Assembly (NCBI RefSeq): GCF_010122465.1
Contig: NZ_WLZY01000006.1
Coordinates: 248,001 to 312,000 of the forward strand
Source of the DNA: Phytoactinopolyspora mesophila
Lineage (GTDB): Bacteria; Actinomycetota; Actinomycetes; Jiangellales; Jiangellaceae
Length of the DNA stretch: 64,000 nucleotides
Reading direction: 5' to 3'
Below are positions 17,971 through 61,071 of this stretch, piece by piece (position 1 is the first letter of the stretch; every line of letters begins with the position of its first letter). Under the pieces are notes generated by a model. That model had not been told where the DNA came from. It was given only the letters and a program-made list of their open reading frames with translations, and ran no database searches. The translations under genes were made by a program, and so were the position numbers.

Positions 17971-21213
<3,243 letters not shown>

Positions 21214-30863: not shown

Positions 30864-30920
30864 GATGGTCCGGTGCGGGCGGGCTTTGCTGCGACTTGGG
30901 GTCTGGAACTTCGATTCGGC

Positions 30921-30936
30921 GCTAAATCGATATAGC
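30921..30936. promoter_or_regulatory. LacI-type operator (autoregulation)
   Basis: GCTAAATCGATATAGC is a 16-bp palindrome with one mismatched pair, about 50 bases before the lacI ATG. It lies in the 17-base spacer between a weak -35 (TTCGAT, 30910-30915) and a -10 (TAGCCT, 30933-30938). The core TAAATCGATATA recurs, with one change, upstream of the ABC transporter operon at 38162-38173, so both are probably sites for this regulator. Confidence 0.6.
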
Positions 30937-30984
30937 CTCATCTTGCTGCCATCTCGCGGCAGCCGGCTATCTGAAGGGGGTCCG

Positions 30985-31977
30985 ATGGCGCATCCGCCGA
31001 GCATCAAGGATGTTGCGCGGGAAGCAGGTGTCTCGCCCACCTTAGCGAGTTTCGCGCTCAACGGACGTGAAGGTGTGGGGGAGAAGACGCGCCAGCGCAT
31101 CCTTGCTGTGGCCGCGGAGCTCGGCTATCGCGGAAATCCGTATGCCCGTGCGCTGCGAACCGGCAGCAGCAACTCCTTCGGACTGCTGATCCGCAACCTC
31201 GGTAACCCGATCTTCCTCGACGTCATCGCGGGTGCGCAGGAAGCCGCCATCGAATCGGAGACGACGGTCCTGGTGGCCGATTCGGACTACTCATTCGATC
31301 GCGAGCGCCAGCACATCGAGCGCTTCGCGGCCAACCGGGTCGACGGGCTCGCCATCGCGCCGGTTGGACCAGGGGAGTCGGTCGAGCTCTGGCACGAGCT
31401 GCGGCCGGGCGCTCCAACAGTGGTGCTTTACGCGACGGCGCAAGGCCTCGACAACGTGATTCGGGTGGGCCCCGACGCGCGGCGGGCGGTGCGCCTCGCC
31501 GTCGAGCACCTGGTCGAATATGGTCACCGGGACATCGCGTTCCTGACCGCGCCCCCGGAACTGATGGCCGACCATGATCGGCTGGCGGAGCTGGAAGTGG
31601 TGTGTGCCGAACTTGGTATCACCCCCCGCCCGGTCGCCACACTGCTCAATCTCACCGCGGTGACCGAGCGGACCACGAAGCTGCTGTCCGGCCCCGGCGC
31701 GCCCACCGCGGTGATCACCAACTCCGACTACACCGCGCACGGTGTGTATCTCGCCGCCCGCGAATGTGGCCTGGTCATCGGACGAGACCTCAGTGTGGTG
31801 GGGCACGACGACCTGCCGACGGCTGCCTTGCTGGACCCACCGCTCACCACCATCACGATGGACGGGCGCGCACTCGGCCGGGCACTGGTCGCGCGCCTGC
31901 GCCAGTCCGACCAGACCGACCATGCTGAATCGGTCGGCCTGGTCGTCCGGCGCTCGACGGGCCCCGCACCCAGCTGA
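30985..31977 (+). CDS. LacI-family transcriptional regulator (Ugp-like operon)
   Basis: 330 residues from ATG 30985; the frame is open from 30865, but the helix-turn-helix starts here (SIKDVAREAGVSPTLASFALNG), followed by the hinge helix KTRQRILAVAAELGYRGN. The rest is a periplasmic-binding-protein-like effector domain (VDGLAIAPVGP, HRDIAFLTAP, VVGHDDLPTAALLDPPLTTI). It is convergent with the ABC importer/glycerophosphodiesterase operon, whose promoter carries the same operator, so it likely represses that operon until a sugar- or glycerol-phosphate-like effector binds. Confidence 0.9.
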   Translation: MAHPPSIKDVAREAGVSPTLASFALNGREGVGEKTRQRILAVAAELGYRGNPYARALRTGSSNSFGLLIRNLGNPIFLDVIAGAQEAAIESETTVLVADSDYSFDRERQHIERFAANRVDGLAIAPVGPGESVELWHELRPGAPTVVLYATAQGLDNVIRVGPDARRAVRLAVEHLVEYGHRDIAFLTAPPELMADHDRLAELEVVCAELGITPRPVATLLNLTAVTERTTKLLSGPGAPTAVITNSDYTAHGVYLAARECGLVIGRDLSVVGHDDLPTAALLDPPLTTITMDGRALGRALVARLRQSDQTDHAESVGLVVRRSTGPAPS

Positions 31978-32000: not shown

Positions 32001-32112
32001 CTCCGGAAGATGGATTCTCTCCATGGTGTGGTGGGCATCAGCGAGGGAGGCCGATGGCGCAGCCTCCCTCCGACCGAGTCTGCTGGGCGAGGAGAGAATC
32101 CATCTGCCGGAG
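32001..32112. repeat. Long-armed inverted-repeat element, copy A
   Basis: Arms 32001-32022 and 32091-32112 are 22-bp inverted repeats with one mismatch. They enclose a 68-base core that contains its own hairpin (GGGAGGC/GCCTCCC, 32045-32068). The core is clearly related to the core of copy B at 60352-60419, also 68 bases, though the arms differ completely. It fills nearly the whole gap between two convergent genes and could end transcription from both sides, but no U-run follows. Confidence 0.75.
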
Positions 32113-32114
32113 CC

Positions 32115-33776
32115 CTAGCCGTTCAGCTCCGCATGCAGCTGGGTCGCGTACTCCTCGTCGCCGCCGGTGCCGCTGGCGCCGATACGCCACTTGCCGCCGT
32201 CGTACTCACCGGCCGGCCAGTCGCGCCCACCACTCTCCCAGTGGGGCGTCCAGGCGATGAAGTTGTGCGCGGTGGAGAAGAACACGTCGTCGTCGGCCCA
32301 GGCGGAGCCGTCCTGGTACGCGGCGACGACCGTCAGGTTGTCGTCCCACGCAACGGTCCAGTCGGACATCGGCATGGCATGGCTGCGTTCCCGGTCGAGA
32401 ATCTCGTTGTCGCCGATCCGCGGCAGGCCGGTGTCGAGGCCCCAGCCGACCTGGTAGACCGGCTCGGACGTCTCACCGTTGACATGCCAGGTCATTTCGT
32501 GGTCGAACCATTCGTCCTCGAAACGGAACTCCCAATCCACCTCGATCGGCTCGCCGAGCATGGGAATGCCGAGCAGGCTCAGCTCCCGGCCGTCGTCGGA
32601 CTGCACGATCTCAGCCGGCTCGCCGATGGGCAGGACCGGGCTGAACTGGCCGACGCCCACGAACGGCACGGTGCCGCGCGTGGTGTGGTTGAGGATCTCG
32701 CGGTGTTGCCCCTGCCCGGACGGGTCGAAGCCGAGATTGACGATCCGGGTGTCGGGCGAGGTCGAGAGCACCAGCCGGTAGTGGCTGGATTCGAACACGA
32801 TGTCTTCGGCGTCGTCCTCCGGAGGTTCGAACTCCAGCCCGAGCAGGCCGTGGTCGATCATCTCCCGCAGCATGTCCGGGTAGTCCGTGGCAACAGCGGC
32901 GGCGCCGAGATCGTAGGCGTCGTACATCCGGCCGGCGTCGTTCAACGTGTAGAGACCGAAGTTGAACCCGAGGTCATGCAGGTCGTCGTGCAGCCGCGGG
33001 TTGTTCGCGACGTTGTCGAAGGCGGTGATCATCCAGTCGGTGTACTCGGCTGTCTCCTCGAGCGCCTCCCGGCTGGGGATGTTCCCGGCGCCCCACATGG
33101 GCACGAAGGTGATGCCGTCCGGTGCGATCGGCATGAAGTCTTCGGTGAGCCATTCCCGGTCGAAGGCGAGCACCTGGATGAGTCCGCGCTTCAGCGCCCC
33201 GGGGAGGTATCCGGGCACGGCCTCGAGTTCCTCGATGATCCGCTCGGATATCCCGGGGTAAAGGTGTGGCGACTTCACGTCCAGCTGGACACCCGCGCGA
33301 TGATTGATGAGCTCGATCGCCTCGCGCAGAGTCGGGACCTCTTCACCGGTGAAGCGCGGGTTGAATGGGCTGCCGGCATCGAGCTGTTTGATCTCGTCCA
33401 GGGTGAAGTCGCGTACCCGCCACGGAGCTCGGTCAGGGAAGAGCTCCCGGACGTTCGTGGTCGTGTCGAGGACGGTGTCGTGAACAAGCACGATCTCGTC
33501 GTCGGCGGTCAAGTGCAGGTCGAATTCGATGAAATCGGCCTTCTGCTTGATCCCGAGAGAGAAGGCGGTGAGCGTGTTCGACGGCGCCATACCTGATGCG
33601 CCCCGGTGGGCGGCGATGAGCATTTCGCCGGATGAATCAGCTGGCTTCTTCGTGTGTTGCACTTCGTCTGGACTGGCGGACGCTGCTGCGAACAGCGCTG
33701 CCGCGGTCGCGACCACGACGGCGAGCACAACGGCGATACCGCGCCTCAACGTCCTCGATACGGCTAACGAACCCAT
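32115..33776 (-). CDS. Secreted glycerophosphodiester phosphodiesterase
   Basis: 553 residues from ATG 33776 (GGGAGG eight bases upstream); the longer frame to 34118 is a shadow. A signal peptide (TLRRGIAVVLAVVVATAAALFA) precedes a GDPD TIM barrel with LIAAHRGASGMAPSNTLTAF, the catalytic EFDLHLTADDEIVLVHD, and VQLDVKSP. The last 250 residues or so (after EFEPPEDD) form a beta-rich, tryptophan-rich region I do not recognise, possibly a carbohydrate- or lipid-binding module. It would hydrolyse glycerophosphodiesters outside the cell to glycerol-3-phosphate and an alcohol. It is the last gene of the importer operon. Confidence 0.88.
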   Translation of the reverse strand: MGSLAVSRTLRRGIAVVLAVVVATAAALFAAASASPDEVQHTKKPADSSGEMLIAAHRGASGMAPSNTLTAFSLGIKQKADFIEFDLHLTADDEIVLVHDTVLDTTTNVRELFPDRAPWRVRDFTLDEIKQLDAGSPFNPRFTGEEVPTLREAIELINHRAGVQLDVKSPHLYPGISERIIEELEAVPGYLPGALKRGLIQVLAFDREWLTEDFMPIAPDGITFVPMWGAGNIPSREALEETAEYTDWMITAFDNVANNPRLHDDLHDLGFNFGLYTLNDAGRMYDAYDLGAAAVATDYPDMLREMIDHGLLGLEFEPPEDDAEDIVFESSHYRLVLSTSPDTRIVNLGFDPSGQGQHREILNHTTRGTVPFVGVGQFSPVLPIGEPAEIVQSDDGRELSLLGIPMLGEPIEVDWEFRFEDEWFDHEMTWHVNGETSEPVYQVGWGLDTGLPRIGDNEILDRERSHAMPMSDWTVAWDDNLTVVAAYQDGSAWADDDVFFSTAHNFIAWTPHWESGGRDWPAGEYDGGKWRIGASGTGGDEEYATQLHAELNG

Positions 33777-33813
33777 GTGAACGGCCTCCCTTTTCAGTGG
33801 CGGCTGGCGGGGG

Positions 33814-34641
33814 TTACTTGATCCCAGAGCGCATAAAGCTCTGGATGAACTGCCGCTGAGTGAGCAGGAACAACGCGAGCAGCGGCGCGACGACGATGAC
33901 GGTCCCTGCGGTGAGCGAGGCGAAGTCGATTCCGGTCTCGGGGGAGAGGAAACGCACGATCCCGACCGTGATCGGGCGGGACTCCGGCGAGCGGGTGATG
34001 ACCAGCGGCCAGAGGAAGTTGTTCCAATGGAAGCTGATCGACACCAGACCGAACGCGACGATGGTCGGGCGGGCGATCGGCACGTAGACCTTCCACAACG
34101 TCTCCAGCCGGGAGGCACCTTCGATCTCGGCCGCTTCGACCAGTTCGCTGGGGACCGTCTTGAACTGCTGCCGAAGGAGGAAGATGCAGAACGCGCTCGC
34201 CGCGTACGGGATGGCGATACCGGGGATCGTGTCTTGTAGCCCGAGGTTGGAGACCAGCCGGTAGTTCTCCGTCAGCAGGATCTCCGGGAAGATCATCAGC
34301 TGTAGCAAGACGAAGGCGAACACGATGTCCCGGCCCGGGAACGTGTAGCGAGCGAGCGCATACGCGGCCAGCACGCCGAGGATCAACTGGACGACGACCA
34401 GACTGCTGACCAAGATCACCGTATTCATGAAGTACCGGTCGAACGGCGCGGCGTTCCACACCGACTCCACGTGGTCGAACGTCCAGCCCTGGAACGGGTT
34501 GAGGGTCAAGGCCACCGCGGGTTGCCGGAACGCCGCCCAGAACACGTACAAGAGCGGCGCGATCCAGAGGAATCCGAGCAGCCAGGCCATCCCGACTTCG
34601 ATCTTGTCGGAGATGCGCGGCAACAGCGTTGTACGGTTCAT
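33814..34641 (-). CDS. ABC importer permease, UgpE/MalG type
   Basis: 275 residues with six predicted membrane helices. The EAA loop that docks to the ATPase is VEAAEIEGASRLETLWKVYVP. The N-terminus is WLLGFLWIAPLLYVFWAAFR and the C-terminus QRQFIQSFMRSGIK, as in carbohydrate (CUT1) permeases. It pairs with the upstream permease, eight bases away. The operon's secreted phosphodiesterase suggests glycerol-3-phosphate or glycerophosphodiesters as substrate. Confidence 0.92.
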   Translation of the reverse strand: MNRTTLLPRISDKIEVGMAWLLGFLWIAPLLYVFWAAFRQPAVALTLNPFQGWTFDHVESVWNAAPFDRYFMNTVILVSSLVVVQLILGVLAAYALARYTFPGRDIVFAFVLLQLMIFPEILLTENYRLVSNLGLQDTIPGIAIPYAASAFCIFLLRQQFKTVPSELVEAAEIEGASRLETLWKVYVPIARPTIVAFGLVSISFHWNNFLWPLVITRSPESRPITVGIVRFLSPETGIDFASLTAGTVIVVAPLLALFLLTQRQFIQSFMRSGIK

Positions 34642-45917: not shown

Positions 45918-46439
45918 GTGCCGGAGCCCCTGGATCTGAACTTTGACCCGATCGAACGTGCCGGGTCCATCTGGCAGGAGCGTTTCGGTCCGGCGGAAGC
46001 CATGGCGGCGGCCACCTCCATCATGCGCGTACAGCAGCTGTTGCTCGGTGAGTTCGACCGCATCTGCCGGCCCTACGGACTGACGTTCGCGCGCTACGAA
46101 GCGCTCGTCCTGCTCAGCTTCAGCCGCACCGGCGCGCTTCCGATGGCCAAGATCGGTGAGCGTCTGATGGTCCATCCCACGAGCGTCACCAACACGATCC
46201 AGCGGCTGGAGACTGCCGGCTTCGTGACCCGGGAGCCCAACCCCCGTGACGGCCGCGGCACCCTGGCCCGGATCACCGACTCAGGGCGCGACGCGGTGAA
46301 GAAAGTGACGTCGGAGTTGATGGACGCCGAATTCGGACTGACCGCGCTCGACGACGAGCAGCGACTGGCCGTGTTCGAGCTGCTGCGCACGGTCCGCGTC
46401 GCCGCCCGCGACTTCCACACCGATGATCATGAACACTAA
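45918..46439 (+). CDS. MarR-family transcriptional regulator
   Basis: 173 residues from GTG 45918 with GGAGG upstream. The winged helix is MAKIGERLMVHPTSVTNTIQRLETAGFVTREPNPRDGR, and LARITDSGRDAVKKV is the wing strand. A longer N-terminal helix (EAMAAATSIMRVQQLLLGEF) forms the dimer interface. Synteny with the meaB region recalls Streptomyces AbsC, though that is from memory. Its last codons (DDHEH and the TAA stop) are encoded by the left arm of the palindrome at 46420. Confidence 0.88.
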   Translation: MPEPLDLNFDPIERAGSIWQERFGPAEAMAAATSIMRVQQLLLGEFDRICRPYGLTFARYEALVLLSFSRTGALPMAKIGERLMVHPTSVTNTIQRLETAGFVTREPNPRDGRGTLARITDSGRDAVKKVTSELMDAEFGLTALDDEQRLAVFELLRTVRVAARDFHTDDHEH

Positions 46440-46476
46440 GTGACCGTATCGGTCACGTAGTGTTCATGATCATCGG
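46420..46476. repeat. 57-bp near-perfect palindrome, copy 1
   Basis: Arms of 27 bases (46420-46446 and 46450-46476) with one mismatch and a three-base loop form a very stable hairpin. The core GATGATCATGAACACTA and GTGACC is shared with copy 2 at 47501-47553. It contains the stop codon of the MarR gene and may terminate transcription, although the run of U expected of an intrinsic terminator is missing. Confidence 0.9.
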
Positions 46477-46548: not shown

Positions 46549-47505
46549 GTGTCCGAGAATACGATGCCGCCTGAACTCGCTGAACTCATCGAACAGCAGG
46601 CCGGAATGGTCTCCTGGGCGCAGTTGCGCGCGGCCGGAGTCGGCCGCGCGGCCATCCGGTCGCGACGATGGCGGCAGCGTCACCGGGGTGTTTATGCGAC
46701 ATTCAGCGGCCCGCTGAGCCGCGAGGCCGAGATTTGGGCGGGCGTGCTAAGGGCCGGTCCCGGAGCGGTTGCCAGCCATCAGACCGCAGCCGAGCTCTAC
46801 GGGCTCACTGAGCGCATCGATGACCGGATCCACGTCACGGTTCCCGCTGATCGCCGAGTGCGTGGGAAGATCGACGGCGTGGTGATCCACTACGCGCATC
46901 GCCTGCCGAAAACTCGGCATCCATCCAAGCGCCCTCCCCGGACGCGCATTGAAGATACGGTGCTCGATCTCGTCGACACGTCCCACCATCCTCGCGCTGT
47001 CGAAGGATGGGTCACGCAGGCTTGTCAGAAGCGACTGACCACTCCGGAACGCCTCGCAGAAGCCATGGCGGAACGAAAAAAGATCAAGTGGCGGCCGATG
47101 ATGGAGTCGATGCTCGGCGATGTTGCCGAGGGTGCCCATTCTCCATTGGAACTCAAGTATCTGCGTTCGGTTGAACGCGCGCATGGGCTTCCTCGCGGAA
47201 TCCGGCAGAGCCGACCATCCGGTGCGCGTATCGTCTGGACCGACGTTCACTACAAACAGTTCCGGTCGGTGGTTGAACTCGATGGACGCGTCGGCCACGA
47301 GGGGGAGGGGCAGTTCCGAGATCGTCGCCGGGACAACCGATCCATGGCAGACGGTCTGTGGACGTTGCGTTACGGCCACGCTGACACCTTCGGTTCTCCC
47401 TGCGACATCGCCGCCGAAGTCGCGCGCGTCTTGCGTTCGCAGGTTTGGGCAGGTGAACCGAGGCCCTGTTCAGCGGATTGCCCAGCACCGGAACTCAACC
47501 GATGA
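46549..47505 (+). CDS. AbiEi-like antitoxin N-terminal domain fused to DUF559 (Vsr-like) nuclease fold
   Basis: 318 residues from GTG 46549 (ATG 46564 also possible). The N-terminal winged helix resembles type IV antitoxin AbiEi (MVSWAQLRAAGVGRAAIRSRRW, RHRGVYAT, AVASHQTAAELYGL). The middle (RTRIEDTVLDLVDTS) continues that family. The C-terminal 120 residues follow the DUF559/Vsr endonuclease pattern: SPLELKYLRSVER, VWTDVHYKQFRSVVELDGRVGH and RDRRRDNRSMADG, with the conserved E, D, E and R/N of the family. Solitary copies are common in actinobacteria; no toxin gene adjoins. It is bracketed by two palindrome copies. Confidence 0.8.
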   Translation: MSENTMPPELAELIEQQAGMVSWAQLRAAGVGRAAIRSRRWRQRHRGVYATFSGPLSREAEIWAGVLRAGPGAVASHQTAAELYGLTERIDDRIHVTVPADRRVRGKIDGVVIHYAHRLPKTRHPSKRPPRTRIEDTVLDLVDTSHHPRAVEGWVTQACQKRLTTPERLAEAMAERKKIKWRPMMESMLGDVAEGAHSPLELKYLRSVERAHGLPRGIRQSRPSGARIVWTDVHYKQFRSVVELDGRVGHEGEGQFRDRRRDNRSMADGLWTLRYGHADTFGSPCDIAAEVARVLRSQVWAGEPRPCSADCPAPELNR

Positions 47506-47553
47506 TCATGAACACTACGTGACCAATACGGTCACGTAGTGTTCATGATCATC
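47501..47553. repeat. 53-bp palindrome, copy 2
   Basis: Perfect 24-base arms (47501-47524 and 47530-47553) with a five-base loop, same sequence family as 46420-46476. It lies between the convergent AbiEi-like and CnoX-like genes and overlaps both stop codons, so a bidirectional terminator role is plausible. Confidence 0.9.
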
Positions 47554-58649: not shown

Positions 58650-59596
58650 ACCCAACCGAGCGGGCGCGAGGCTGCCTCGTCGGTCTCGCGGTCGGAGACG
58701 CGATGGGCGCCCCGGCAGAGAACATGACCGCCGGGGCGATCGCCGAACGCTGGGGCCAGGTCACCGGCTTTCTCACCGATGCCAGGGCCGGCACGGACGA
58801 CACGGAGTACGCCGCCTTCAGCGCGCTGCTGCTGCTTGACCACGGCTCTGCCCTGACCAGCGAACACGTAGCCGATGCGTGGACGAAGCACCTGGTCCGT
58901 CGCACCGGCGGTTTCCCTGGTGCGGGGTTCAGCGAGCTGGGCACGGTGGAGAACCTCCGGTCCGGTCTCCGGCCGCCGGCCAGCGGGGAGCATCTGCATT
59001 CGTGGAGCGACGGCTTGGCGATGCGGGCCGCCGTGCACGGCGTGTTCGCGGCCGGCGACCCGGTGGAGGCAGCACGGCTCGCCGCGGTCGACGGCGCGGT
59101 GAGTCACGCGGGCGAGGGTGTCTACGCCGGTCAGGCCGTGGCAGCCGCGGTGTCCGTCGCGATGTCCGGTGCTGATGTGGATGGGGTGGTCGCTGCGGCC
59201 CAGGCGGCCGCGCCTCCGGCGTCATGGACCGCCCGATCGCTCGACTCGGCTGTGGCGCTGCACGCTGATCCGGAAGCGTTGCTCGATGCACTGGTGACCC
59301 GCCGCTACCCGTGGACCGACCTCGCACCGGAGGCGGCCGGCCTGGCCTTCGGCGCGTTCATTGCGGCCCGCGGCGTATTCGAAGCGGCAGTCCCGGCCGC
59401 CGTGTCGATGGGCCGGGACGCCGACACCACCGCGGCCATCGCCGGCGCCCTGGCCGGTGCATCCGGCGGGCTCGCGGCGATCCCGAGCCAGTGGTCCGGA
59501 TCGATCGGCCCGGTGACGGGGCGCTGCCTCGGCGACGTCGTCGCGGGACTACATCTGGCCGGCCTGGCCGACCAACTCGTAGGAGCGACGCCGTGA
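58646..59596 (+). CDS. ADP-ribosylglycohydrolase family protein 1
   Basis: 316 residues from GTG 58646. All-alpha ADP-ribosylglycohydrolase (DraG/ARH) fold: ARGCLVGLAVGDAMGAP at the N-terminus, the first metal-binding motif TDDTE at 50-54, SHAGEGVYAGQAVAAAVS in the centre, and the second metal motif GRDADTTAAIAGALAGA from about 256. Both halves of the dinuclear magnesium site are intact, so it is probably active on an N- or O-ribosyl bond. First of four paralogues in a row. Confidence 0.9.
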   Translation: MNPTERARGCLVGLAVGDAMGAPAENMTAGAIAERWGQVTGFLTDARAGTDDTEYAAFSALLLLDHGSALTSEHVADAWTKHLVRRTGGFPGAGFSELGTVENLRSGLRPPASGEHLHSWSDGLAMRAAVHGVFAAGDPVEAARLAAVDGAVSHAGEGVYAGQAVAAAVSVAMSGADVDGVVAAAQAAAPPASWTARSLDSAVALHADPEALLDALVTRRYPWTDLAPEAAGLAFGAFIAARGVFEAAVPAAVSMGRDADTTAAIAGALAGASGGLAAIPSQWSGSIGPVTGRCLGDVVAGLHLAGLADQLVGATP

Positions 59597-61071
59597 ACGA
59601 TGACCCCAGCGTCCTGCGAAGTGAGGGTCACGACGCTCGCTCGGCAGGACGCAACGGACGAGGCGGGGCGTTGATCGGCCTGGCGATCGGCGACGCCGCC
59701 GGCTGGCCGGCACGGCAGCACCGCTCGCACCTCTTGCCTTCGTGGACTCGGAGGCTGCGGCGTGAGCTCGACACGTTCGCCGAGGCCGAGGAGGTCACCT
59801 CGCTCCCGGTGCCGTTCGCGCTGAACCAGGAGCCGGGTCCGCTGCGCCTCGGTCCCAGCGACGACGCTGAATGGGCCGCTTGGACCCTCACCTGGCTGCG
59901 CGCCACCGATCCGCTCACCCGCCAAGCCGTGCACGACACATGGCGCGAAGCAGCGACATCGGAGAATCTGCCGCGAGGGCGGATCAGTACGGCAACGGCG
60001 GCCGACGCTCTGCGCAAGGGATCTCGTCCGCCTCAGACCGGGCAACATAATCCACATCACTTCGACGACGCTGCGGCCGTGCGTGCGGTCGCCATCGGAG
60101 CGGTCATCGCCGACCCGGATCGCGCCGCGGACGTCGCCGAATGGGACGCCGAGGTCACCAACGCCGGCGACGGCGTGTACGCGGCCCGCGCCATCGCGCG
60201 GATGGTCTCGTTGGCAGCTTCATGGCCTCCTGTAACGGGTAGCGAGGCTGAGCGGCTCGGAAACGTTACGCCAGGCCACGAAGTAGCCGCACCCGCAGAA
60301 GGTGAGACGCGTACGGAGGGCGAGGGGCTGGAGAGCGGCGGAGGTCCGTCCAGGGCTCGGGCGGGCATCGGCGAGCGAGGACGATGGCGAAGCCCGTCTC
60401 CGAACGAGTCCGCGGGCGGGGACGGACCTCCGCCGCCCTCCAGACCTGCGGAGGTGGTGCGGGGCGAGCGCCGGGATGGACCTCCGGCGCCGTCCAGCCT
60501 CGCGGGGGTGGTGCGGGGCGAGCGCCGGGATGGACCTCCGGCGCCGTCCAGCCTTGCGGGGGTGGTGCGGGGCGAGCGCCGGGACGGACCTCCGCCGTTC
60601 TCCGGCCTTGCCGAGGCGGCGCGCGAAGTGCTGCTGGCGGAACTGCCTCCGGAGACGCTGATCGGCCGGACGACGCGGCGGGCGCTCGAGCTGACGAGGG
60701 ACGCGTCGTCGCCGGCCGAGGCGGTGCCGTTGCTCGACGACGTGGTGGACCGGGTGTACTCGTACGGCACGGCGGCCGCGCAGACTGTCGCGGTGGCGGC
60801 GGCTCTGGCCGGGGCAGCGCTGCGTAACGGCACACTGCCGATCGAGGCGGTCACGGCGGCGGCTTGTCTGCCGTCGCTCGCCGATAGCGCTCCAGCCTTG
60901 ACCGGCGCGTTGGTCGGTGCGGTGGTGGGTGTTGATGCGTTCCCGGCGAGCTGGGTCGAAAGATGCAGGGTGCTGGCCGGGTGCTGTGCTCCGCCGCTGG
61001 CCGGCGTGGACATTCTCGATCTTGCCGGAGGCTCCGGTGATCTTGCACATGACGAAGGGAAATATCTGTGA
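59593..61071 (+). CDS. ADP-ribosylglycohydrolase family protein 2, degenerate site with inserted repeats
   Basis: 492 residues from GTG 59593, overlapping the previous stop; the frame is open from 59311 but the fold starts here (RGGALIGLAIGDAAGWPA). The first metal motif has changed from TDDTE to SDDAEW (89-94), and the second reads LADSAPALTGALVGA in place of GRDxDTxxxxxGAxxGA, losing key aspartates. NAGDGVYAARAIARMVS remains. Residues about 245-340 are a foreign, Arg/Pro/Gly-rich insertion made of repeat element copy B and three 18-residue repeats. It may be a regulatory or non-catalytic paralogue. Confidence 0.82.
   Translation: MNDDPSVLRSEGHDARSAGRNGRGGALIGLAIGDAAGWPARQHRSHLLPSWTRRLRRELDTFAEAEEVTSLPVPFALNQEPGPLRLGPSDDAEWAAWTLTWLRATDPLTRQAVHDTWREAATSENLPRGRISTATAADALRKGSRPPQTGQHNPHHFDDAAAVRAVAIGAVIADPDRAADVAEWDAEVTNAGDGVYAARAIARMVSLAASWPPVTGSEAERLGNVTPGHEVAAPAEGETRTEGEGLESGGGPSRARAGIGERGRWRSPSPNESAGGDGPPPPSRPAEVVRGERRDGPPAPSSLAGVVRGERRDGPPAPSSLAGVVRGERRDGPPPFSGLAEAAREVLLAELPPETLIGRTTRRALELTRDASSPAEAVPLLDDVVDRVYSYGTAAAQTVAVAAALAGAALRNGTLPIEAVTAAACLPSLADSAPALTGALVGAVVGVDAFPASWVERCRVLAGCCAPPLAGVDILDLAGGSGDLAHDEGKYL
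60325..60446. repeat. Long-armed inverted-repeat element, copy B, in frame within a gene
   Basis: Arms 60325-60351 and 60420-60446 are 27-base inverted repeats with two mismatches. The 68-base core between them matches copy A (32023-32090), including GGGCATC, GATGGCG, AGCC, TCCGA and CGAGTC at corresponding places. The arms are unrelated to those of copy A. The element keeps the reading frame and encodes a region with GRWRSPSPNESAGG. Confidence 0.8.
60453..60614 (+). repeat. Three 54-bp tandem repeats next to element B
   Basis: Units start at 60453, 60507 and 60561; the third diverges toward its end. Each encodes about 18 residues, VVRGERRDGPPAPSSLAG. The unit includes a variant of the right arm of element B (GGAYGGACCTCCG), suggesting the tandem array grew out of the arm. 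Confidence 0.88.

What the first reader, a model, noticed from the sequence alone, without database searches (positions are those of the whole stretch)
32001..32112. Repeat family with a conserved 68-bp core and sequence-variable long inverted arms
Copies at 32001-32112 and 60325-60446 share a core of exactly 68 bases, with long identical stretches (GGGCATC, CGATGGCG, CGAGTC). Their flanking inverted arms (22 and 27 bp) are each self-complementary yet unrelated to each other. Conserved core with private, compensating arms is unlike IS ends or ordinary REP/MITE elements, where the ends are the conserved part. The arms may be copied from the target or rewritten on insertion, or the hairpin itself may be what is maintained.
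Basis: seen in the sequence. Interest (0 to 1): 0.8.

Follow-up and report, generated by a model that had tools for sequence, protein, structure and literature searches.

The report
Mobile hairpins with matching, ever-changing stems
This actinomycete carries dozens of copies of a small mobile DNA hairpin, mostly just behind genes, whose loop is conserved while the two sides of its stem keep changing in step; at the one site that could be compared closely with relatives, the whole stem arrived with the element and was not copied from the insertion site.

Summary
The repeat is real. Both window copies belong to one element with 80 covariance-model matches in this genome, found in 18 of 22 family genomes and 0 of 18 others. 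The inner core is conserved (45/55 between the window copies). Arms of about 24 bp are nearly perfectly complementary (39 mismatches in 1361 trimmed pairs), although their sequence diverges strongly between copies. Of 53 intergenic copies none lies between divergent genes, and 35 start within 20 bp of a stop codon. At one well-aligned site seven relatives lack both arms and any hairpin, so there the palindrome arrived whole, not copied from the target. Orthologous arms change mostly in pairs, including symmetric indels. Best reading: a MITE-like mobile palindrome at gene 3' ends, probably a transcription terminator, whose arms stay complementary by arm-to-arm copying (template switching) plus selection. 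Placement, mobility and paired change are shown; terminator function and template switching are inferred, and a mild G·T excess among mismatches partly favours selection. No Y1 transposase in 14 family genomes tested; the mobilising enzyme is unknown.

The parts
32001..32022 (+). left arm of copy 1
   Evidence: pairs with 32091-32112, 21 of 22 positions complementary
32023..32090 (+). 68-nt loop of copy 1 (spacer ATGGTGTGGT, conserved core, spacer)
32033..32087 (+). conserved 55-nt core of copy 1 (long form, with inner hairpin)
   Evidence: aligned with copy 2, 45 of 55 columns identical
32091..32112 (+). right arm of copy 1, 2 bp from the stop codon (TAG, minus strand) of the GDPD-domain gene
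30865..31977 (+). LacI-family regulator gene upstream of copy 1 (convergent); start uncertain (30985 by codon usage)
   Evidence: (PF00356, PF13377)
32115..34118 (-). glycerophosphodiester phosphodiesterase-domain gene downstream of copy 1 (convergent); start uncertain (33728 by codon usage)
   Evidence: (PF03009)
60328..60351 (+). left arm of copy 2 (24 bp, 1 mismatch; imperfect pairing continues to 60325)
60352..60419 (+). 68-nt loop of copy 2
60363..60416 (+). conserved core of copy 2
60420..60443 (+). right arm of copy 2
60419..60611 (+). 3.6 tandem copies of a 54-bp unit that begins with the right-arm sequence of copy 2
59311..61071 (+). ADP-ribosylglycohydrolase-domain ORF that reads through copy 2 in frame (start uncertain, 59671 by codon usage); the linker holding it is much shorter in G001, G003 and G004

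Best explanation
A mobile palindromic element (MITE-like, about 80-125 bp), nearly restricted to one actinomycete family, settles immediately downstream of stop codons. Shown: it is dispersed; at one well-aligned site it arrived as a whole palindrome; it avoids promoter (divergent) regions; and its two arms change together in place. Inferred: its hairpin acts as a transcription terminator or 3'-end structure for the adjacent gene, which explains why it is tolerated and kept. Inferred: complementarity is renewed at DNA level by replication template switching between the arms (quasipalindrome correction), with selection for the hairpin as a second force. Inferred: the conserved core is what an unknown mobilising enzyme recognises. 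The core may be lost by slippage between repeats at the inner arm ends, leaving a plain hairpin (one candidate case, L370).
For: Copies: 59 exact core-pattern matches against 0 for the reversed pattern in the own genome; covariance model 80. Whole-palindrome insertion: at L367 seven relatives (G006, G010, G012, G013, G015, G016, G021) have the empty site, and no arm lies nearby. Placement: 0 of 53 intergenic copies in divergent gaps (23% of intergenic bp, P=7e-7), 30 of 53 convergent (18% expected, p=5e-10), 22 of 53 at <=5 bp and 35 of 53 at <=20 bp from a stop codon (two overlap the gene end), core orientation 40:13. Hairpin swap: at L371 five relatives have an ordinary hairpin (stem 11-13 bp, read by eye) between the flanks where G018 has the element. 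Paired change: 18 short-core copies, 338 of 357 arm cells paired, 143 changed on both sides, 7 on one side with pairing kept, 19 unpaired (partners slid by 1-3 columns pair in 38-52%). Orthologs: 38 paired columns against 10 one-sided in 21 comparisons, including a symmetric 2-nt indel (L366/L377) and 1-nt indel (L352/L397). Wobbles are rare: G.T 13 and A.C 8 of 1361 own-genome pairs. Tandem units that break off at or within the right arm (L067, L070, L122, L051) look like template-switch or slippage products. The process itself is published for other sequences (passages of PMC8794818).
Against: No transcript data; no T-run is seen behind copy 1 on either strand. Strong selection for pairing with fast compensation could also give few mismatches. 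27 of 57 own-genome elements have at least one mismatch; 4 of 60 fetched g3 loci hold a decayed or cut-off element and a fifth lies at a contig end. Arms were delimited by their complementarity, which lowers the counted mismatches. The cruder first alignment of orthologs gave 66 paired against 32 one-sided columns. No template-switch event was caught in strains close enough to show it as one step. Whole insertion was shown at one site. At L371, G012 holds a decayed copy, G019 another hairpin and G015 none. No mobilising enzyme identified. Four of 57 armed copies lie inside predicted ORFs, where a terminator would be harmful.
Confidence: 0.57

Rival explanations
1. Pure RNA-level selection: the element is a structural 3' RNA hairpin (terminator or mRNA stabiliser) and arms diverge through ordinary compensatory mutations; no copying between arms.
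For: Position and orientation next to stop codons; strong folding; covariation; lean to G.T among mismatches on the core strand, 25 against 12 A.C over both genera. Odds raised from 0.25 to 0.28 on recounting this.
Against: G.T and A.C together are 21 of 1361 arm pairs in the own genome, few for stepwise compensation through wobble pairs; the nearer gene's transcript in the own genome mostly reads the other strand (40:13), where wobbles would appear as A.C; even the most similar copies (<=3 differing columns, 105 pairs of elements) differ on both sides 182 times against 49; symmetric indels in orthologs.
Confidence: 0.28
2. Insertion into pre-existing terminator hairpins: the core alone is mobile and enters the tip of a hairpin already present, so arms are private because terminators are.
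For: Plain hairpins exist at some orthologous gene ends (L202, L213; L371 locus); at the L370 locus G017 has an arms-only hairpin of the same arm family, which could be a precursor as well as a remnant.
Confidence: 0.08
3. Arms copied from the target on insertion (inverted duplication of flanking DNA).
For: Short-core copies have private arms of up to 33 perfect bp (L130); degraded palindromes extend further out in some copies (L001, L006, L118).
Against: No arm sequence at or near the empty sites of L367.
Confidence: 0.05
4. Ectopic gene conversion: arms of one copy are replaced as a block, core included, by those of another copy in the same genome.
For: Mosaic copies exist (short core with long-core type arms, L079, L115, L118).
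Against: Only 4 of 1176 pairs of 49 own-genome elements have identical inner 18-bp arms, so donors are few; paired changes of single columns between orthologs are smaller than a conversion of both arms would give.
Confidence: 0.12

Closest known systems
REP elements / REPINs with RAYT (Y1) transposases
   Same: Short palindromes in gene 3' extragenic space, many copies, no coding capacity.
   Different: REPs are tagged palindromes (GTAG or CGTC; title and start of abstract of PMC3733652 in the listing); here the loop is conserved and the stem varies. No Y1 transposase in 22 genomes, 14 of them of the family.
MITEs, in particular SPRITE of Streptococcus pneumoniae (terminator-like element)
   Same: Small non-autonomous mobile palindrome; SPRITE is described as rho-independent-terminator-like (passages of PMC10969869).
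   Different: In MITEs the ends are the conserved part (recalled); here the ends vary, the host is high-GC, and no related transposon was found.
Rickettsia palindromic elements (RPE)
   Same: Palindromic, sometimes inserted in frame in coding genes, like window copy 2.
   Different: RPE arms lose identity with time according to PMC6649704 (passages); here most arms stay matched. Mostly intergenic here.
Coding palindromes of nematomorph mitochondria (PMC6649704)
   Same: Near-perfect inverted repeats whose match seems actively renewed; template switching is discussed as a possible mechanism (passages).
   Different: Mitochondria of animals; I saw no shared mobile core described in the passages.
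Template-switch mutations that create and maintain RNA hairpins (PMC8794818)
   Same: Same proposed process for paired stem changes (passages).
   Different: Described for RNA genes such as rRNA and microRNA, not for a dispersed bacterial mobile element in the passages seen.

Membership tests
REP/RAYT elements | Y1 (RAYT/IS200-type) transposase in the genome | tested here: not met
   PF01797: 0 of 22 genomes (14 of the family, G000-G013; G014-G021 were not in that call), 5 of 14 control genomes positive
REP/RAYT elements | conserved palindrome with a tag tetranucleotide at its foot | tested here: not met
   flank listing of 57 elements shows no shared tag; arms variable. CTAG within 25 nt on the right in 12 of 57 copies only
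MITE | short, dispersed, present/absent at orthologous sites | tested here: met
MITE | conserved terminal inverted repeats shared with an autonomous transposon | tested here: inconclusive
   ends variable between copies; no autonomous relative searched for beyond PF01797
MITE | target-site duplication | tested here: inconclusive
   possible 3-bp CCG at L367, read by eye; one site only
Intrinsic transcription terminator | GC-rich hairpin directly behind stop codons, absent from promoter regions | tested here: met
Intrinsic transcription terminator | U-tract behind the hairpin | tested here: not met
   no T-run after copy 1 on either strand, read directly; other copies not scanned
Intrinsic transcription terminator | terminates transcription | not testable with these tools
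   needs Term-seq or reporter
Rickettsia palindromic element | in-frame palindromic insertion in protein genes | tested here: met
   copy 2; 4 of 57 copies inside predicted ORFs
Rickettsia palindromic element | sequence relationship to RPE families | not tested
   no RPE model or sequence was compared
Known Rfam RNA family | covariance-model match | tested here: not met
   0 matches at gathering score in the window; only chance-level matches (E 0.28, 0.49) around copy 1; copy 2 not searched at relaxed threshold

The most novel reading that the evidence does not exclude
A self-renewing mobile palindrome: the conserved core promotes replication template switching, so that each element rewrites both arms together. 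Spreading copies thereby seed new, private, perfect hairpins that serve as terminators and outlive the core. This would be a mutational, not purely selective, source of compensated stems in bacteria.
Probability: 0.2. Interest if true: 0.85.

Novelty: new variant of a known kind. Interest (0 to 1): 0.62.

Why it matters
Compensated changes in stems are normally taken as evidence of selection on RNA structure. Here is a natural system with dozens of copies per genome, orthologs in related species and empty sites, in which selection and template switching can be told apart. If the hairpins terminate transcription, it also shows a mobile element handing out and replacing terminators. In the listings of the literature searches made here no description of this element turned up; those searches cover open-licence papers only and are not proof that none exists.

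Tried and rejected
Known RNA family: Rfam gave nothing. REP/RAYT: no Y1 transposase. Target-copied arms and insertion into existing hairpins: disfavoured by the empty site at L367. Same-genus empty sites: gene ends were found in G001-G004 but the intergenic DNA is too diverged to align, so they show presence or absence of hairpins only; some relatives carry an element with other arms and another core at the same gene end (L169, L175, L184, L198). G.T against A.C as a strand test for RNA selection: 13 against 8 in the own genome, 12 against 4 in g3, a mild lean that I first left out. Arms-only hairpins with typed inner-end patterns in 1.26 Mb: none. The motif GAGCGAGGNACGAGCGAG is wider than the element (37 of 393 genomes, 19 of 137 genera); in the 30 loci fetched there, stems of >=18 bp were seen only in the window's family, and two family loci (L286, L298) lacked them. 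One covariance hit outside the family (G117, E 3e-5) was not followed.

Empty-site query: 12 elements were sent; both flanks aligned in fetched relatives' loci for L367 and L375 (one and the same locus), L371, L370 and L355 only; the other seven gave no readable site. At L355 (G013) three relatives (G012, G016, G019) lack the element within aligned, apparently coding flanks. At L371 relatives G014, G016 and G020 were not read; at L370 only G017 and G021 were.

Rows dropped: of 67 deduplicated core hits in G000, 57 had arms of >=18 bp in register and entered the counts; the rest are mainly tandem or truncated copies. Of 60 g3 loci fetched, 45 entered (plus L290, L296); 15 were dropped: 9 have other core variants with long arms, 4 have the core with decayed or cut-off arms, 1 (L354) lies at a contig end, 1 (L351) has a 12-bp stem. 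The ortholog set L368/L383 (4 paired, 7 one-sided columns) was left out. Orthology of L365/L379 is uncertain, and L372/L392, L376/L296 and L374/L290 align poorly; these four are included in the totals, where L372/L392 alone contributes 6 of the 16 symmetric-indel columns through a shifted arm boundary. Comparisons within a set, and tandem copies, are not independent.

Full report
Observation. Each is a hairpin with a 68-nt loop; the conserved part is a 55-column block with 45 identical positions. Copy 1 lies between a LacI-type regulator and a convergent GDPD-domain gene, 2 bp from the latter's stop codon. Copy 2 lies inside an ORF with ADP-ribosylglycohydrolase domains and is read through in frame. 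In G001, G003 and G004 the same gene has a much shorter linker there; G002 has a different element, with other arms and another core by eye, in the same linker.

Copies. The pattern GGGCATCRGCGAG...CGAGTCYGC has 59 exact matches in the window's genome and none for the reversed control; the four other same-genus genomes have at most one each. The covariance model R1, built from 18 short-core copies, finds 80 in the own genome, 26 in G001, 32 in G011, 21 in G018, and matches in 18 of 22 genomes of the family (none in G007, G008, G015, G019) against 0 of 18 genomes of other families (the number of candidates scored per genome is capped). In a wider class sample, with stricter filters, 15 of 197 genomes match: 14 of the family and one marginal outsider, G117. 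There are two core forms in G000, long with an inner hairpin and short without, and further core variants in relatives. A genome-contig scan with a short-core pattern, which may leave out the window's own genome, found one match, in an actinomycete MAG.

Arms. In 57 own-genome elements 39 of 1361 arm pairs are mismatched and 30 elements are perfect; median arm length is 24. Arms were delimited by their complementarity, so decayed outer parts are not counted. Arm sequence is far less conserved than pairing: mean identity between copies at positions 13-20 is 57% (32 long-core) and 34% (18 short-core). In 18 short-core elements 338 of 357 cells pair, 19 of 20 pairs show a change on both sides, 143 cells are changed on both sides, 7 on one side with pairing kept, and 19 do not pair. 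Sliding the partner by 1-3 columns lowers pairing to 38-52%. In 47 g3 elements 28 of 1075 arm pairs are mismatched and 26 elements are perfect.

Place. Of 57 armed copies 30 are in convergent, 23 in tandem and 0 in divergent gaps, and 4 in ORFs. Divergent gaps hold 23% of intergenic bases in 464 kb of this genome (P=7e-7). Of 53, 22 lie at <=5 bp and 35 at <=20 bp from a stop codon. The right arm faces the nearer stop in 40 and the left in 13 (p=2.7e-4). That stop is TAG in 24 of 53 against 63 of 383 genes (p=9e-6), so the element may sometimes supply the stop codon; this was not followed. Gene calls come from a simple codon-usage script and are approximate; tandem copies are not independent.

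Insertion. In genus g3 the flanks of elements align between species. At the L367 locus G017 has the element 16 nt behind an apparent TGA stop. In seven relatives the aligned flanks, which end 10-13 nt left and 1-5 nt right of the arms, are joined with -3 to +4 nt between them, without any arm or hairpin. G019 has a 31-nt stretch there; G018 has an element in the opposite orientation with other arms; G020 has another variant within an extra stretch of about 850 bp. The outer 18 nt of the arm are not found within about 1.5 kb of the sites of these eight relatives (the seven and G019) at <=4 mismatches. Here the palindrome arrived whole, and the spot was probably hit more than once. At L371 five relatives (G006, G010, G013, G017, G021) have an ordinary hairpin (11-13-bp stem by eye) where G018 has the element; G012 has a decayed element, G019 another hairpin, G015 none; three more genomes were not read. 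At L370 G017 has an arms-only hairpin and G021 nothing. Of 12 elements queried only these loci and L355 gave readable sites.

Change in place. In 12 sets of likely orthologs (21 pairwise comparisons, not independent) 405 columns are unchanged, 38 changed in pairs, 16 are symmetric indel columns, 10 one-sided, 1 changed on both sides without pairing, and 2 indel mismatches; a thirteenth set, poor in pairing, was left out, and the cruder alignment gave 66 paired against 32 one-sided columns. The clearest set (G021, G012, G018, G013) is perfect in all four species with 1-4 paired differences per comparison and no one-sided one, while the flanks are 82-96% identical. L366/L377 differ only by a symmetric 2-nt indel and L352/L397 by a symmetric 1-nt indel. 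Of 60 g3 loci, 4 hold the core with decayed or cut-off arms, so renewal is not universal.

Mechanism. Selection on an RNA hairpin explains position and pairing. It does not readily explain the rarity of wobble pairs (21 of 1361), the symmetric indels, and the dominance of two-sided differences among the most similar copies (182 against 49 columns in 105 pairs). Replication template switching between arms does, and is described elsewhere (PMC8794818, passages; PMC7202029 and PMC8604942, search listing with abstract starts). Tandem units broken off at or within the right arm fit that picture. Against it, the mismatches that do occur lean to G.T on the core strand (25 against 12 A.C over both genera), as RNA selection would give if that strand is the transcript. 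Both forces may act. Terminator function rests on position and on the hairpin swap at L371 only.

Wider setting. The genus is rich in other long hairpins, mostly outside genes: in 400 kb, 16 (G000) and 14 (G003) with score >=20, 2 in G010 of genus g3, none in one Markov-resampled control each. Some of these families also combine conserved inner arms with private matching outer arms, so the process may not be peculiar to this element.

Noticed in passing
window 46420-46476 and 47501-47553: Two copies of another palindromic repeat (GATGATCATGAACACTA...), each at or overlapping a predicted gene 3' end; similar hairpins occur in G000 C1 and in G003.
   Followed up: partly
window 60419-60611: 54-bp tandem repeat within the ADP-ribosylglycohydrolase ORF, made of the right arm of copy 2 and following sequence; encodes a repeated peptide.
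   Followed up: partly
window 18358-18454: Perfect hexamer array TGTCGG, 16 copies.
   Followed up: no
L078, L139, L141 (mid-locus): Three element copies carry the same foreign sequence (...GGAGCCGGCAAGCG[T/C]GACCATCAGCTGG) joined at the CATCAGC part of the core: possibly another small element that targets this one.
   Followed up: no
G003 C1 (L238-L257), positions 251614-251711 and 352099-352264: Stems of 47 and 63 bp; other repeat families with private, matching outer arms.
   Followed up: no
L302, L304 and the table (G102 24 matches, G064 10 matches): The core motif GAGCGAGGAACGAGCGAG recurs in other actinomycete families without long arms, e.g. within GTCGAGTAGCCGAGCGAGGAACGAGCGAGGCGTATCGAGAC.
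   Followed up: partly
G000 element-adjacent genes: TAG stop codons are enriched next to elements (24 of 53 against 63 of 383).
   Followed up: no
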